This document shows, piece by piece, positions 19,758 to 26,801 of a stretch of DNA of 64,000 nt. Position 1 is the stretch's first letter. Each line of letters starts with the position of its first letter. Below the pieces are notes generated by a model that did no database searches, was not told the origin of the DNA, and saw nothing but the letters and a program-made list of their open reading frames with translations. Origin of the DNA: Phycisphaerales bacterium (lineage in GTDB: Bacteria; Planctomycetota; Phycisphaerae; Sedimentisphaerales; Anaerobacaceae); NCBI GenBank assembly GCA_003170415.1, contig PMZJ01000026.1, positions 1-64,000 on the forward strand. Reading direction: 5' to 3'. The position numbers and the translations under genes were made by a program.

Positions 19758-22757
19758 ATGAGCGTAAAATTGCCAGCATCATTTGCCCGATGTCCCCGGA
19801 TAGTATTATTTCGCTTGGGTATCTACGCCTGTTTCTTTTTTTCCGGGGCCACGTCGCTTTTGTTCGAGGTCCTCTGGAGCCGTCAGTTCGTAACCGTTTT
19901 TGGCAACAGCTCTTACGCCATTAGTATTGTGCTTTGTGCGTATATGGCTGGCATTGGCCTGGGCGGGCTTCTCGGTGGTCGATTGGCGGACAGTGTTACT
20001 CGTCGAACGCTCGCTTTTGCCCTTGTTCAGGTGGCTGTCGCACTCTGTGCCCTGGCAATTCCGCCTATGCTTGACTGGATGAGGTTCCTTGTCCCTACAC
20101 TCCCCGCTTTGTCGCCACACTCTCTTTTGGTCAGCACGCTGGCCCGCTTCGTCTTGTCTTTCGCTATTCTCGTGGTGCCCTGTTTTCTGATGGGTACGAC
20201 GCTGCCTCTTCTGGTTCGGGTGGTTACCGATTCCGACAGAACCATCGGCTCTCGTATCGGCCTGCTGTATTGTGTCAACACCCTCGGCGCCGCCCTCGGC
20301 TGTCTGGCAGGTGGGTTTTGGATGATAGGAACGTTCGGTCTGCGAGGGACAAACCAACTGGCCGTCGGCGTCAATTTTGTAATCGCCATTCTGGCCTTGG
20401 CCCTGTCCCGGCGTGCCGATACAGCGCTCTCGGCAATCCCCACTACGCTCCCGACTCCTCATACCGAAAGGATTGACCACAATGAAGAGCCGGAGGTGTC
20501 CGCTCGGTTATTGTTGGCCTTGGCGTTTCTCAATGGCTTTGCCGGCCTGGCGTGCGAGGTTCTCTGGATACGATATATGTCTTTTATAGTCAGTTCGACT
20601 TATGTCTTCCCCACTATCCTCTGTGTTTATCTCCTCGGTGCCGGCCTGGGCGGGTTGATATACGGCTTGCTGGCAGGGCGAATTCGACGACCGGCGCTGA
20701 CGCTTGGCGTTGTAGAAATGTTGTTAGTGCTTTCGGTTCCTGCCACTTTTATAACCAGCGTGTTTCTTTTCGCCAGCGGACCGCCTCCGCCGCTCGACCA
20801 GAAAGGTATGGCCCTGCTCATTGTCTTTCTCCCCACTGTTTTGATGGGTATGGCGTTCCCTCTTTTGTGTGCCGTGTATGGACGACACGTCCAGACCCTC
20901 GGTCGCCGGACCGGATTGCTCTACGCGGTCAATACGGCCGGGACGGTCTTGGGGGCGCTTTTGCCGATATTCGTTTTTATTCCGTTCCTCGGCATCCAGA
21001 TGAGTTTATGGCTCATATCAGCGGTATATGGCGTTATGGGGCTTGCACTATTGGCCTTCGCCAATGCGAAGAACCGTATGGCTATGGGTACTGTCTTGGT
21101 GCCGGCAACCATTACTTATGCCGTCGTTCTATTCCTGTTGTTTGGAATGGTCCCTGCTGACCTTTGTCAGCGGGTGTTCCTTGCCACGGATTTCGGCCTG
21201 GCAAAACACACTGACATCCTCTTCTACTGCGAAGGCCGAACCGGCACCGCCATCGTAACTCGTAACCGCATCAACAATTGCAGGACGGTTTACATCAATG
21301 GCGTTTCCGAAGTCCCCATCCTCTATCCGCATCTGCTCTGCTTCAAGATGATTGGCGACCTCGCCCCAATGCTCCACCCCAAACCAGATGATGTTCTTAT
21401 GATATGTTTCGGCGGCGGAGTCGCCGCTGGCGCAACCTCGGTTTTGCCCGAAGTAAAATCCCTCACAATAGTGGACCTCGAAAAAAGCGTCGTTAATGCC
21501 GCCGCCCTTCTCTCACAGGAAAATAACGGTCTCCTCCAAAACCCAAAGGCAAAAGTCGTCATAGACGACGGCCGAAACTTCATTATGACCTCCCCAAGAA
21601 AGTGGCCCGTCATTGTCTCCGACTCCACACACCCAAAATCCGGCGACAGTTGGGTCCTCTATACTCAGGAATTTTACCAGCAGGTGCGGGACCACCTAAC
21701 CGACAATGGCGTCTTTGTCGAGTGGGTCCCCATTCACGGCCTGCGCGTTGCCGAATTCAAAATCATCACACGAACCTTCCAGTCCGTCTTCCCTCACACC
21801 AGCATGTGGGTTGTTCACGGCGTTGACGAGCAGGCGCGCTTCGTCTCTTATGTGCTGCTTGCTGCTACGCCGGAACCCCTTCAAATCGACGTGGCTAAAT
21901 TACAGGGCCGCCTAAACGCCGAACCCGTCCGCCGTGACCTCCAGCCCTACGGCCTGCATACCCCCGCCGGCTTTCTCGATTCCTTCCTTTGCGCAGAGGA
22001 AACACTGCGGCGATGGACAGGTGATGGTCCGGTCAATACCGACGACCTCCCCTTTACGCAGTATATGACGCGGTACTCCCAGGGTCCCGCCTTTCGTAAT
22101 GCCGACTTTATCGAGCCGATGGAGGACATCTGGCCCTGCCTGACCAACACCGGCTCCGAAGAAGACGCAAAACAATTGCACGAAGCCCTTAAGCTTCGTG
22201 CCGAGGCCAATCGCTTTGCGTTGACAGGCCGACTCGACAAGGCCTATGTCGTCCTCCCGGACGATGTTCGTTACCAGCAAATGCGGCGACTTTATGAACA
22301 GGGGCCACGTTACGTCCAGGCCCTCGTGGACATATACCGCGACAATCCAAAAGTCCTCGAATTGCTTGCACTTCTTCGCCTCTCCGGCCCCGGCGGTCTG
22401 CAGGCCACCGCGCCTATTTATCAGCGGATATTGAAGCTTGACCCCAAAAACGTCAATGCTCTCAACTCGCTTGGCGCTATTTGCATAAACGCCAATCTTC
22501 TCCCGCAGGCGGAAAACTACCTCACACTCGCCGTCCAGTTGGCGCCGGATTCCGTTACCGCTCGCTATAACCTCGGCCTCGTCTTTTATCGCACAGGCCG
22601 ACCGCAACTGGCTGTCCCTCATTTGCGATATTGTCTTGATAAAGACCCCAATGACCAGACCTCGCGTGGTATCCTCGCCAATATCGAACAAGCAGGAAAA
22701 ACTCTTCCCCAAAATGATATTCATCAGGATGTTTCCCCCAGCCGACCCAGGAATTGA
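19758..22757 (+). CDS. Membrane spermidine synthase-like protein with C-terminal TPR repeats
   Basis: Multi-TM N-terminus (SGATSLLFEVLWSRQFVTVFGNSSYAISIVLCAYMAGIGLGG), methyltransferase-like VLMICFGGGVAAGATSVLP...VVIDDGRNFI, TPR at C-terminus. Confidence 0.85.
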   Translation: MSVKLPASFARCPRIVLFRLGIYACFFFSGATSLLFEVLWSRQFVTVFGNSSYAISIVLCAYMAGIGLGGLLGGRLADSVTRRTLAFALVQVAVALCALAIPPMLDWMRFLVPTLPALSPHSLLVSTLARFVLSFAILVVPCFLMGTTLPLLVRVVTDSDRTIGSRIGLLYCVNTLGAALGCLAGGFWMIGTFGLRGTNQLAVGVNFVIAILALALSRRADTALSAIPTTLPTPHTERIDHNEEPEVSARLLLALAFLNGFAGLACEVLWIRYMSFIVSSTYVFPTILCVYLLGAGLGGLIYGLLAGRIRRPALTLGVVEMLLVLSVPATFITSVFLFASGPPPPLDQKGMALLIVFLPTVLMGMAFPLLCAVYGRHVQTLGRRTGLLYAVNTAGTVLGALLPIFVFIPFLGIQMSLWLISAVYGVMGLALLAFANAKNRMAMGTVLVPATITYAVVLFLLFGMVPADLCQRVFLATDFGLAKHTDILFYCEGRTGTAIVTRNRINNCRTVYINGVSEVPILYPHLLCFKMIGDLAPMLHPKPDDVLMICFGGGVAAGATSVLPEVKSLTIVDLEKSVVNAAALLSQENNGLLQNPKAKVVIDDGRNFIMTSPRKWPVIVSDSTHPKSGDSWVLYTQEFYQQVRDHLTDNGVFVEWVPIHGLRVAEFKIITRTFQSVFPHTSMWVVHGVDEQARFVSYVLLAATPEPLQIDVAKLQGRLNAEPVRRDLQPYGLHTPAGFLDSFLCAEETLRRWTGDGPVNTDDLPFTQYMTRYSQGPAFRNADFIEPMEDIWPCLTNTGSEEDAKQLHEALKLRAEANRFALTGRLDKAYVVLPDDVRYQQMRRLYEQGPRYVQALVDIYRDNPKVLELLALLRLSGPGGLQATAPIYQRILKLDPKNVNALNSLGAICINANLLPQAENYLTLAVQLAPDSVTARYNLGLVFYRTGRPQLAVPHLRYCLDKDPNDQTSRGILANIEQAGKTLPQNDIHQDVSPSRPRN

Positions 22758-22858: not shown

Positions 22859-22886
22859 TTGCAAAAACGGCGGCGATGACTATAAT
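22859..22886 (+). promoter_or_regulatory. Sigma-70-like promoter
   Basis: TTGCAA, 16-nt spacer, TATAAT. Confidence 0.5.
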
Positions 22887-22951: not shown

Positions 22952-24280
22952 ATGGAAGCAATAGCACAGGCGCAGAGCGGAATAGATTTGTTCGGCGAAG
23001 AGCTGCTGAGCATAGAGCAGATAAAAAGGTTGTCGGAACGGGTACATTCGAGCGAGGCGAGCCGATTAGCTTTTGCGGAGCAGGTTGAGCAGAATTTGAG
23101 CAAGACCGGCGGCAAGGGCTGTCTCGCCGCGGGTATAGGGCTGTTTATCCTGGGCAGAGACGCTGAGGCGGTCGAGAAACTGCAGAAGGGAAGCGACTGC
23201 AAAGAGAAGTTTATGTGCCTGGCGTTTGCGCTTCGTCGGCTTGGCAAATACGACGAGGCGATAGAGAACCTTAACGCCGGTGCAAAACAGGGAGCGGATT
23301 CACTGGCTATTTCGCTGGAGAAAGCGGCCACGCATCGCATAGCCGGCAAGTTCGAGTCGGCGGAAAAAGAGATGAAGGGCTGCGGTAATTTCAAGAACGT
23401 AAGCGCGGAATTCCATTATCAGCTTGGCCGATTGCGTGAGGCGCAGGGGCTGTATGAGGATGCGGTAGAAAACTACAAGGCGGCCTTGGAGCTTTCGCCG
23501 AGACATCAGGAGGCGATGTTTCATCTGGCGTATCGATGCGACCTTTCGGGTGATGAGGATGCGGCGATTGATTATTACAAGGCGATTGCCTCGTCGTCGC
23601 CGGGGTACACAAGCGCGTTGCTGAATCTGGCGGTGATTTACGAGGACAAGGGCGATTACGACAAGGCGGCGCGTTGCGTTGATAAGGTTTTGGCGTGTCA
23701 TCCGAATCATAAGCGGGCGATTTTGTTCCGGAAGGACATCGAAAGCTCCAAGACGATGGTTTATGACGAGGAAACGGAGAAGAAGAAGACCCGCAAGATG
23801 CAGATTATCGAGACGCCGTTATCGGATTTTGAGCTTTCGGTGCGAAGCAGGAATTGTCTCAAGAAGATGAATCTGAATACGCTTGGGGACCTTTTAAGAA
23901 CCACGGAGGCGGAGTTGCTTGCGTTTAAGAATTTCGGCGAGACGAGCTTGCGGGAGATAAAGGCGATTCTGGATTCGAAGAATTTACAGCTTGGGATGAT
24001 GCCTGAGGACAGGCAGTTCGGGTCAGTCGAGCCGGCACAGACCAGTGTTGTCGATGAGCCGATCGCGGACCAGGGGTTGTCAAACAAACCGATAGTGGAT
24101 TTGCAGTGGTCGGTGAGGGCGAAAAAGGCGCTGCTGAAGCTCAACCTTCGCACGGTCGGAGAGTTGACGCGGATTACGGAAGCGGAACTGCTGGGCTGCA
24201 AGAATTTTGGCGTAACGAGCTTGAACGAAGTGAAAAGGGTCCTGGCGAATCTCGGTTTGTCGCTGCGGACGTTGGAGTAA
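22952..24280 (+). CDS. TPR protein with two tandem RNA polymerase alpha-subunit C-terminal-like domains
   Basis: TPR repeats then LSDFELSVRSRNCLKKMNLNTLGDLLRTTEAELLAFKNFGETSLREIKAILDSKNLQLGM and VDLQWSVRAKKALLKLNLRTVGELTRITEAELLGCKNFGVTSLNEVKRVLANLGLSL, both like E. coli RpoA CTD. Confidence 0.88.
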   Translation: MEAIAQAQSGIDLFGEELLSIEQIKRLSERVHSSEASRLAFAEQVEQNLSKTGGKGCLAAGIGLFILGRDAEAVEKLQKGSDCKEKFMCLAFALRRLGKYDEAIENLNAGAKQGADSLAISLEKAATHRIAGKFESAEKEMKGCGNFKNVSAEFHYQLGRLREAQGLYEDAVENYKAALELSPRHQEAMFHLAYRCDLSGDEDAAIDYYKAIASSSPGYTSALLNLAVIYEDKGDYDKAARCVDKVLACHPNHKRAILFRKDIESSKTMVYDEETEKKKTRKMQIIETPLSDFELSVRSRNCLKKMNLNTLGDLLRTTEAELLAFKNFGETSLREIKAILDSKNLQLGMMPEDRQFGSVEPAQTSVVDEPIADQGLSNKPIVDLQWSVRAKKALLKLNLRTVGELTRITEAELLGCKNFGVTSLNEVKRVLANLGLSLRTLE

Positions 24281-24359: not shown

Positions 24360-25670
24360 ATGTGGTTTCGGCAATTCGGGTGGCGCAGAGATTTCGGGAT
24401 ACAAAGGACGGTCAGCAACTGTCTGCTGGCGGGAATGCTGCTGGCCGGGGCTGTGGCGTTTTTCAGTTGCCGCGAACAAATGGTCGTGCGAAGTACTCCG
24501 CAAATGAGCGCTGAACAGCGTTTTATGGTACGAGTGTTGCTGGCGGATGATGCGAATCACTGCACGGTTAAGATGCGAGGGGGCTTTAGCTTATTTAACA
24601 GCGACGGGAGCGTTCTGATTCCAGATACGATATTTGCCAATAGCGGGCAGGCGATGGATGTGGGAATTGCGGGCGGGGAGTTTACAATCGGCGGCAGGAG
24701 ATTTGCGACCCGCGAGATTACAATTTTACCCGATGAGCCGTTTACATTTGTGATGGACGGCAACGAGTTTCGCGGCAAACTGCTGCTGAAAGCCAACGTT
24801 GACGGGCTGACGTTCGACGCGATAAACATTGTGCCTGTTGAGCCGTATTTGGCGGGGGTTGTCGGGGCGGAGATGCCCGACCGCTGGGAGGCGGAGGCAT
24901 TGAAGGCGCAGGCAATAGCTGCGAGGACTTATTGCCTTTATAACAAAAAGAAATTCGGCTATATGCGCGACTGGGACGTGGCAAGAACACAGGCAAGCCA
25001 GGTCTATATGGGATTGAGGGGTGAATCAGCGAGCGTATGGAGGGCGGTCAACGATACGGCGGGAGAGATACTGGTCTGTGAGCAGGCAGGCCTGCCCGGC
25101 GTGGGAGCGTCTGGAGAGGAGATTTTCCCGGCGTATTACAGTTCAAGCTGCGGGGGGCATACCGAGGACGCTAAAAACGTATTCGGGGATTCGTTTGGGC
25201 CGCTTTGCGGGGTGGATTGCCCGTATTGCAGGGGAGTGGCAAGGCCGGATATATTTTTCTGGCCGATGGTTCAGTTTGACAAAAGGACGGTTGCGATTGC
25301 CTTGCAGAAAAAGTATCCGCAACTAAAAGGGCTTGGTGATATCGCGAATATATCGGCGGTCAAACAGAGTGACTACCCGGATTTCTCTCGCATAACAATG
25401 GTGAAACTTACCGGCACAAACGGCAGGAGCGAATTTTTGAGAGCGGAAGACCTCCGGCTAACGATTGACCCTGCTGGCAACAGGATTCGCAGCGTCGCCT
25501 GCAAAATTGCCATTATAGAAAACAAGATTGCGTTTCTGGCGGGCAGGGGTTTTGGGCATGGCGTTGGGATGTGCCAGTGCGGGGCACAGGGTATGGCAAT
25601 GCAGGGCAAGACCGCCGGCGAGATTCTCTCCTATTATTATCCCGGCTCAAAAATAGTGAGAGCTTATTAA
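24360..25670 (+). CDS. SpoIID/LytB domain protein
   Basis: YLAGVVGAEMPDRWEAEALKAQAIAARTYCLYN; YYSSSCGGHTEDAKNVFG; GFGHGVGMCQCGAQGMAMQGKTAGEILSYYYPG. Confidence 0.93.
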   Translation: MWFRQFGWRRDFGIQRTVSNCLLAGMLLAGAVAFFSCREQMVVRSTPQMSAEQRFMVRVLLADDANHCTVKMRGGFSLFNSDGSVLIPDTIFANSGQAMDVGIAGGEFTIGGRRFATREITILPDEPFTFVMDGNEFRGKLLLKANVDGLTFDAINIVPVEPYLAGVVGAEMPDRWEAEALKAQAIAARTYCLYNKKKFGYMRDWDVARTQASQVYMGLRGESASVWRAVNDTAGEILVCEQAGLPGVGASGEEIFPAYYSSSCGGHTEDAKNVFGDSFGPLCGVDCPYCRGVARPDIFFWPMVQFDKRTVAIALQKKYPQLKGLGDIANISAVKQSDYPDFSRITMVKLTGTNGRSEFLRAEDLRLTIDPAGNRIRSVACKIAIIENKIAFLAGRGFGHGVGMCQCGAQGMAMQGKTAGEILSYYYPGSKIVRAY

Positions 25671-26801
25671 ATGAATGGCTTTGAGATAAGGTGCCGGGAC
25701 AAAAATAGCGCAGCGAGGCGCGGCATTTTGAAGACGGTGCACGGGGAGGTTGCGACGCCGGCGTTTATGCCGGTGGGGACAGCGGGGACGGTCAAAGGGA
25801 TTACGCCTGCTCAATTGCGGGAAGTTGGTGCGGAAATAATTCTCGCAAACACGTATCATCTTATGCTGCGGCCCGGCGTTGACGTGATAGAAGGTATCGG
25901 CGGGCTGCACAAATTTATGGGCTGGGATGGGCCCATATTGACCGACAGCGGGGGTTATCAGGTATTTTCGCTTAGCTCGCTGACAAAGATTGACGACGAT
26001 GGCGTCGAATTTGCCAGCCACATTGATGGGGCGAAGGCGTATTTAGACGCGGAGGGTGCGACTAAGATTCAGAACCGGCTGGGCTGCGATATCGCGATGT
26101 GTTTTGACCAGTGCCCGGCGTTTGGTTGTGAGCAGGCGGAATTAGAACGGGCCGTCAACAGGACAATCCGCTGGGCGAAACGATGCAAAGATGCGCACAG
26201 TAACTCCAAGCAGATGCTTTTCGGGATAGTGCAGGGCGGGATAGATTTGGTGATGAGGGAGCGTTGCTCGGCGGACTTGATAAAGATGGATTTCGACGGC
26301 TACGCAATGGGCGGGCTTGCCATCGGCGAGGGACATGAAAATATGATAAGGACGGTTCGCCATACCGCGTCGTTTTTGCCTGAAGATAAGCCGAGGTATT
26401 TGATGGGCGTTGGGATGCCCGCGGATATTATCGCGGCGGTGATGGCGGGTGTGGATATGTTCGACTGCGTGCTGCCGACCCGCAATGGGCGAAACGCATA
26501 CGCGTTTACAATGAATGGGCCGCTGAGGATGAGGAATAACGAGCATATAACCGATGCCGGGCCGATTGAGCCGGACTGCGATTGTTACGCCTGCGGGCAA
26601 TTTTCGAGGGCGGCAATCCGTCACTTCTTTAACGCAGGCGAGATGATGGGACCGATTCTGACGACGATTCACAACCTGAGGTTTTATCAGCGGCTGATGA
26701 GCGAGATACGTCGGCGGATCGAAAAGGACGAGATGACGCAGTGGGGTAATGAGCAGCTTGGCAGGATGTCGGCGTGGAACGGCCCGGCGGAGGAAGGGTA
26801 A
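25671..26801 (+). CDS. tgt: Queuine tRNA-ribosyltransferase
   Basis: MPVGTAGTVKGITPAQL, LTDSGGYQVFSL, GGLAIGEGHENM, DMFDCVLPTRNGRNAYAFT. Confidence 0.96.
   Translation: MNGFEIRCRDKNSAARRGILKTVHGEVATPAFMPVGTAGTVKGITPAQLREVGAEIILANTYHLMLRPGVDVIEGIGGLHKFMGWDGPILTDSGGYQVFSLSSLTKIDDDGVEFASHIDGAKAYLDAEGATKIQNRLGCDIAMCFDQCPAFGCEQAELERAVNRTIRWAKRCKDAHSNSKQMLFGIVQGGIDLVMRERCSADLIKMDFDGYAMGGLAIGEGHENMIRTVRHTASFLPEDKPRYLMGVGMPADIIAAVMAGVDMFDCVLPTRNGRNAYAFTMNGPLRMRNNEHITDAGPIEPDCDCYACGQFSRAAIRHFFNAGEMMGPILTTIHNLRFYQRLMSEIRRRIEKDEMTQWGNEQLGRMSAWNGPAEEG

What the first reader, a model, noticed from the sequence alone, without database searches (positions are those of the whole stretch)
22952..24280. TPR protein carrying two tandem RNA polymerase alpha-CTD-like domains
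Seen: N-terminal TPR-like repeats followed by two ~60-aa units that read like RpoA C-terminal domains. Unit 1 (SVRSRNCLKK...KNFGETSLREIK) keeps the residues matching E. coli alpha R265, N268, C269, G296 and S299, which contact UP-element DNA. Unit 2 (SVRAKKALLK...KNFGVTSLNEVK) keeps R265 but not N268. No RpoA N-terminal assembly domain is present. Inference: a factor that could present alpha-CTDs through a TPR scaffold, compete for UP elements or activators, or bridge RNAP to a partner. Related proteins may exist in databases, but I know of no described function.
Basis: partly seen in the sequence, partly recalled or inferred. Interest (0 to 1): 0.75.

Follow-up and report, generated by a model that had tools for sequence, protein, structure and literature searches.

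The report
TPR protein with tandem polymerase α-CTDs
Nearly every planctomycete bacterium sampled carries one copy of an undescribed protein that attaches two copies of RNA polymerase's DNA-touching α-tail to a protein-binding scaffold, so it probably acts as a detached, core part of that phylum's transcription machinery.

Summary
The ORF at 22952-24280 (442 aa) has TPR repeats followed by two true RNA polymerase α-CTD domains (PF03118, two stretches, E 8.5e-37). AlphaFold and Foldseek place the tandem on DNA-bound α-CTD structures. There is no α-NTD, and the genome has a separate ordinary rpoA. It is a near-universal, essentially single-copy gene across Planctomycetota: 60/61 genomes of the order, about 144/150 of the class, about 140/149 of the phylum. 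At a strict cut-off it was absent from 896 genomes of four other phyla, and no fusion appeared in 58 Omnitrophota. Unit 1 keeps R265, N268, C269, N294, G296, S299 and E302 in 82/82 orthologs and is more conserved than RpoA's own α-CTD in matched genomes. Unit 2 keeps R265 but has Lys/Arg at 268. Most likely it is an accessory transcription factor presenting α-CTDs in trans, its TPRs holding an unknown partner. DNA, σ and RNAP binding are inferred, not shown. I found no paper describing it. Verrucomicrobiota and Chlamydiota could not be searched.

The parts
22859..22886 (+). sigma70-like promoter match TTGCAA-16-TATAAT, about 66 bases upstream of the start codon
   Evidence: Consensus scan, 10 of 12; 2 sites found where shuffles give 0.9 +/- 1.0, so weak
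22952..24280 (+). whole gene: TPR - alpha-CTD1 - linker - alpha-CTD2 protein, 442 aa
23009..23401 (+). N-terminal TPR-like helical hairpins (about residues 20-150); variable, absent in several families of the class
   Evidence: AlphaFold helices, pLDDT mostly above 90; mean pairwise identity 19% in a phylum-wide set; shortened orthologs such as L158, 315 aa
23402..23725 (+). TPR core (residues 151-258, three canonical TPRs) with invariant Y209, N225, A239, P251, A256
   Evidence: Pfam TPR_2/TPR_1/TPR_14; invariant columns
23726..23806 (+). capping helix and connector with near-invariant D262, M269, YDEE motif (residues 259-285)
23807..24001 (+). alpha-CTD unit 1 (residues 286-350): R298, N301, C302, N327, G329, S332, E335 equal E. 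coli R265, N268, C269, N294, G296, S299, E302
   Evidence: PF03118 best stretch 278-341; 82/82 invariant; numbering; PDB fold match
24002..24085 (+). disordered acidic linker (residues 351-378)
   Evidence: pLDDT below 50 at residues 351-372; 21-33 residues long in orthologs, pI 4.05
24086..24271 (+). alpha-CTD unit 2 (residues 379-440): R389 equals R265; N268 position is K392 (K/R in 74 of 82 orthologs); basic, pI about 10
24360..25670 (+). SpoIID-domain protein, next gene, probably co-transcribed
   Evidence: PF08486 E 1.3e-24; adjacency kept in related genomes
25671..26801 (+). tgt, queuine tRNA-ribosyltransferase
   Evidence: PF01702 E 8.3e-150; recurring neighbour

Best explanation
The gene encodes a planctomycete accessory transcription factor that carries alpha-CTDs in trans, on a TPR arm instead of on the alpha-subunit assembly domain. 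Unit 1 works as a conserved alpha-CTD: it docks in AT-rich minor-groove DNA near promoters and/or against sigma region 4 and RNAP-bound regulators. Unit 2, flexibly tethered and basic, is a modified partner that touches DNA or protein differently because Lys/Arg replaces N268. The TPR groove holds an unknown peptide or protein partner, which couples that partner to promoters or to RNA polymerase. Shown: the domains, their fold, residue conservation, near-single copy, phylum-wide distribution and separate rpoA. Inferred: DNA, sigma and RNAP binding, the partner, and the direction of the effect on transcription.
For: Two PF03118 domains. Fold match of the tandem to alpha-CTD bound to AT-rich DNA (9zum, TMt 0.81-0.85) and to CAP-DNA-alphaCTD (1lb2, 0.9 A over 61 columns). 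R265/N268/C269/N294/G296/S299/E302 invariant in 82/82 in unit 1, and the acidic pair at 259/261, known from E. coli work as the sigma-contact determinant, conserved. Unit 1 is 76% identical on average across distant genomes, against 64% for RpoA alpha-CTD of matched genomes (9 of the 11) and 53% for unit 2. In E. coli R265 and N268 are needed for DNA binding and N268 substitutions abolish UP-element use (PMC11434276). Near-universal and near-single copy across the phylum. In one lineage where a unit is lost, unit 1 is the one kept (L147; confirmed by Pfam). TPR core with an invariant Asn at the position where TPR proteins use Asn for peptide contact (N225; the position-6 reading is from general knowledge). 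In other planctomycete proteins tandem alpha-CTDs sit beside a Sigma70_r4 HTH, so the module is used elsewhere in a transcription-like setting.
Against: No binding data of any kind. Unit 1 has E at position 297 (96%), where planctomycete RpoA has K (90%), and R at 267 where RpoA mostly has S; this changes charge on the DNA face. Alpha-CTD modules also occur in proteins with no obvious promoter role, such as a PurL and PglW-like kinases. Gene neighbours (ruvA, ruvB, queH, spoIID, tgt, yajC, secD) do not point to transcription.
Confidence: 0.5

Rival explanations
1. The alpha-CTD units have become protein-protein docking modules with no DNA or RNAP role; the protein is a TPR/HhH scaffold for another process, for example recombination, tRNA modification or envelope functions suggested by neighbours.
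For: E297 charge reversal and N268 replacement in unit 2; neighbours ruvA/ruvB, tgt, spoIID; alpha-CTD units found in PurL and kinases.
Against: All key DNA-contact residues of unit 1 are invariant in 82/82 and the unit is stricter than the RpoA alpha-CTD of matched genomes, which a change to pure docking would not require.
Confidence: 0.22
2. It is a negative regulator: a soluble alpha-CTD decoy that competes with RpoA's alpha-CTD for UP elements, activators or sigma region 4, with its activity gated by the TPR partner.
For: Same DNA-facing residues as RpoA's own alpha-CTD but no alpha-NTD; physically detached from RNAP assembly.
Against: Phylum-wide core status is more typical of a constitutive machine part than of a decoy; no regulatory switch identified.
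Confidence: 0.15
3. It is a general DNA-binding or nucleoid-associated protein that uses two minor-groove modules to bridge AT-rich DNA, without RNAP contact.
For: Two DNA-type modules on a flexible 21-33 residue linker; unit 2 basic with pI about 10; closest fold match is an alpha-CTD on AT-rich DNA.
Against: Acidic sigma-facing residues at 259/261 of unit 1 are also conserved; the whole protein is mildly acidic, pI 6.1.
Confidence: 0.13

Closest known systems
RNA polymerase alpha subunit (RpoA), C-terminal domain, PF03118
   Same: Same fold and same 265-determinant residues in unit 1; Pfam far above cut-off.
   Different: No alpha-NTD, so it cannot assemble into core RNAP as alpha does; two tandem CTDs; TPR scaffold; family-specific R267/E297; a separate ordinary rpoA exists.
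TPR peptide-binding scaffolds (OGT, MamA, consensus CTPR folds)
   Same: Three clear TPRs plus TPR-like N-terminal hairpins; Foldseek top hits for the whole model.
   Different: No enzymatic or magnetosome domain; fused to alpha-CTDs.
Stand-alone alpha-CTD-like proteins (NCBIfam PRK07758 'hypothetical protein'; viral ORFs L184-L193; planctomycete L227)
   Same: Alpha-CTD without alpha-NTD.
   Different: Single unit, no TPR scaffold, sporadic rather than a phylum core gene.
Planctomycete proteins with three alpha-CTDs plus a sigma70 region-4 HTH (L225, L229) and PglW-like kinases with an alpha-CTD (L230, L231)
   Same: Alpha-CTD modules outside RpoA, in tandem.
   Different: Different partner domains; found only in some genomes.
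AfsR, a SARP-family activator with a TPR domain (PMC10936776, found; abstract only read)
   Same: A transcription activator in which TPR and alpha-CTD both feature.
   Different: AfsR has its own SARP DNA-binding domain and works with RpoA's alpha-CTD; it does not carry alpha-CTDs.

Membership tests
PF03118 RNA_pol_A_CTD domain family | profile match above curated cut-off in each unit | tested here: met
   76.6 and 59.2 bits against 23.8; 46/46 aligned members match
PF03118 RNA_pol_A_CTD domain family | alpha-CTD fold | tested here: met
   model with pLDDT above 90 over most of both units; TMt about 0.8-0.9 to solved alpha-CTDs
PF03118 RNA_pol_A_CTD domain family | 265-determinant residues for DNA contact (R265, N268, C269, G296, S299) | tested here: met
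   met in unit 1, 82/82; only partly in unit 2, which keeps R265, G296, S299 but has K/R at 268 and C or A at 269
RNA polymerase alpha subunit (RpoA) | N-terminal dimerisation/assembly domain | tested here: not met
   no alpha-NTD Pfam match, TPRs instead; genuine rpoA elsewhere in the genome
RNA polymerase alpha subunit (RpoA) | incorporation in RNAP / promoter binding | not testable with these tools
   needs biochemistry
TPR proteins | at least three TPR motifs forming helical hairpins | tested here: met
   TPR families at 152-255; helices in the model
NusA-type or generic helix-hairpin-helix proteins | HhH match better than PF03118 | tested here: not met
   no HhH family among the 25 Pfam matches shown; NusA scores only 21.8-23.5 bits with PF03118

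The most novel reading that the evidence does not exclude
Planctomycetota have an extra, phylum-defining component of their transcription machinery: a detached tandem alpha-CTD on a TPR arm that works in trans at promoters genome-wide, something like a mobile third and fourth alpha-CTD.
Probability: 0.3. Interest if true: 0.85.

Novelty: new variant of a known kind. Interest (0 to 1): 0.62.

Why it matters
α-CTD is one of the best-studied regulatory modules in bacteria and is normally seen only as the tail of RpoA. A core, near-single-copy gene in essentially a whole phylum that carries two of them on a separate scaffold implies either an extra general transcription factor or a repurposing of α-CTD that has not been described in the literature I could search. 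Planctomycetes have unusual cell biology, and Planctopirus limnophila can be mutagenised (PMC10632474), so the idea is directly testable.

Tried and rejected
Generic helix-hairpin-helix reading: rejected by Pfam and PDB scores and by comparison with NusA. Truncated or duplicated rpoA: rejected, intact rpoA at G000:C7 and no α-NTD here. Recent local fusion or assembly artefact: rejected, conserved in hundreds of genomes. Phage or plasmid origin: viral hits are single α-CTD ORFs without TPR and plasmid hits are rpoA-type fragments. Synteny as a clue to function: the ancestral-looking order is this gene - ruvA - ruvB - queH - spoIID - tgt - yajC - secD, with aroA and ffh upstream on the other strand; housekeeping and not diagnostic. 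Literature: no description found; the P. limnophila essential-gene paper does not mention it in the passages of the main text that I found by term search. PHROGs gave only a marginal match to a head-morphogenesis family (E 0.049). A domain tree shows CTD1, CTD2 and most RpoA CTDs as separate groups (support 0.85, 0.71, 0.75), too short to time the duplication.

Full report
Check of the observation. The reading frame 22952-24280 (+) encodes 442 aa from an ATG behind an AGGAGA run. hmmscan gives RNA_pol_A_CTD (PF03118) in two stretches with whole-protein E = 8.5e-37, and TPR families at residues 152-255. All eight NCBIfam α-subunit models listed match, each only over its C-terminal part and far below its curated cut-off, as expected for a protein with α-CTDs but no α-NTD. 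The best PDB relatives are TPR proteins for residues 151-258 and RNAP α-CTDs for 271-353. With the family profile, unit 2 aligns best to Bacillus- and mycobacterial-type α-CTDs. The same genome has one other PF03118 gene, a normal rpoA at C7. Weak PF03118 matches to NusA in other genomes (21.8-23.5 bits) show what a generic helix-hairpin-helix would score; the two units here score 76.6 and 59.2.

Structure. AlphaFold with 46 orthologs gave mean pLDDT 89.5: TPR-like helices up to about residue 268, a connecting helix at 273-286, two compact α-CTDs and a disordered linker at 351-372. pTM is 0.63, so domain placement is not fixed. The tandem alone matches Caulobacter α-CTD bound to AT-rich DNA, E. 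coli α-CTD with CAP and DNA, and many RNAP α subunits. The whole model matches TPR superhelices.

Distribution. Full-length or core matches occur in 60 of 61 sampled genomes of the order. In the class 145 of 150 pass the cut-off, one of which (G130) covers only an rpoA-like stretch. In the phylum 145 of 149 pass 1e-10; by my reading about 140 of these are the fused protein (E 1e-40 or better) and five are rpoA-only. Most genomes without the fused protein are incomplete. A PF03118 scan of 246 phylum genomes mostly gives three matches per genome, which fits rpoA plus two in this protein. The same protein query at E 1e-28 gave 0 of 199, 0 of 249, 0 of 250 and 0 of 198 genomes in the phyla of an Aminicenantes, an alphaproteobacterium, an Oscillospiraceae and a Spirochaetaceae genome. 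In 58 genomes of the Omnitrophica phylum only rpoA-type and separate TPR matches appeared. In TPR-rich genomes only the first few candidates were scored, a limit that did not prevent detection in Planctomycetota. Verrucomicrobiota and Chlamydiota could not be reached, so 'planctomycete-only' is unproven.

Conservation. In 82 orthologs, unit 1 is invariant at the residues equal to E. coli R265, N268, C269, N294, G296, S299 and E302. D259 and E261, acidic residues known from E. coli genetics to face σ region 4, are kept at 92% (Asp) and 97%. Unit 2 is invariant at R265, N294, G296 and S299, but 268 is K (52) or R (22). In a matched set of genomes (9 RpoA, 11 of this protein), mean pairwise identity is 76% for unit 1, 64% for RpoA α-CTD and 53% for unit 2. 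Over the whole protein conservation falls from CTD1 to CTD2, connector and TPR core, and is lowest in the N-terminal TPRs and the linker. Unit 1 differs from RpoA by R at 267 and E at 297. These face the DNA side in known α-CTD structures (general knowledge), so the DNA mode may differ. One lineage with complete genomes has lost unit 2 and kept unit 1 (L147). Several families of the class lack the N-terminal TPR half (L158). The minimal core is therefore three TPRs, the connector with YDEE motif, and CTD1.

Surroundings. In the window the gene is followed by spoIID, tgt and lon on the same strand. In deeper relatives the order is gene - ruvA - ruvB - queH - spoIID - tgt, with yajC and secD in some, and aroA and ffh divergently upstream (names of these neighbours other than spoIID and tgt are my reading of their sequences). 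This is an old, vertically kept housekeeping neighbourhood and does not identify a pathway. A σ70-like promoter match lies at 22859-22886 (weak).

Mechanism. N268 and R265 are needed for α-CTD binding to DNA in E. coli, and N268 substitutions abolish UP-element activation (PMC11434276). Their absolute retention in unit 1, in a protein that cannot be an RNAP α subunit, is best explained by selection for DNA contact, most likely at promoters. The conserved acidic 259/261 pair suggests contact with σ region 4 as well. The TPR groove, with its invariant Asn225, presumably holds a peptide of a partner. I put 0.5 on an accessory transcription factor working in trans, with pure docking, decoy and nucleoid readings as rivals.

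Comparison. It is a member of the α-CTD domain family by profile, fold and (unit 1) key residues. It is not an RpoA, because the assembly domain was looked for and is absent. It works, by inference, like an α-CTD supplied in trans. Stand-alone and tandem α-CTDs exist in viral contigs and a few other planctomycete proteins, but I saw none that is a phylum-wide core gene. No paper describing this protein was found in the open library searched; subscription literature was not covered.

Noticed in passing
L229:1381-3168 (+) and L225:328-2241 (+): Two planctomycete genomes of one family (f44) encode proteins with three tandem alpha-CTD domains followed by a Sigma70_r4 helix-turn-helix.
   Followed up: partly
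L228:1-2127 (-): A PurS-PurL (FGAM synthase) protein with an alpha-CTD domain inserted between the PurS-like part and the linker domain.
   Followed up: partly
L230 and L231: Large protein-kinase proteins with an alpha-CTD-like domain, resembling BREX PglW; the BREX PglW model also appears in the NCBIfam list for the window protein.
   Followed up: partly
L184-L193: Viral contigs encode small proteins with a single alpha-CTD-like domain; L193 also has an N-terminal stretch that reads like a helix-turn-helix.
   Followed up: partly
L227:1459-1869 (-): A 137-aa stand-alone alpha-CTD protein in a near-complete planctomycete genome (G309).
   Followed up: no
L226:706-1719 (+): Genome G249 has an rpoA-like gene with an alpha-NTD (338-aa frame) besides another PF03118 frame of 437 aa; possible duplicate rpoA or contamination.
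   Followed up: no
window 19758-22757 (+): 999-aa membrane protein combining an MFS-like N-terminal part, a spermidine-synthase domain and C-terminal TPRs.
   Followed up: partly
Planctomycetota RpoA set: Planctomycete RpoA alpha-CTDs usually have Thr where E. coli has K298, and K at 306 in all 31 examined.
   Followed up: partly
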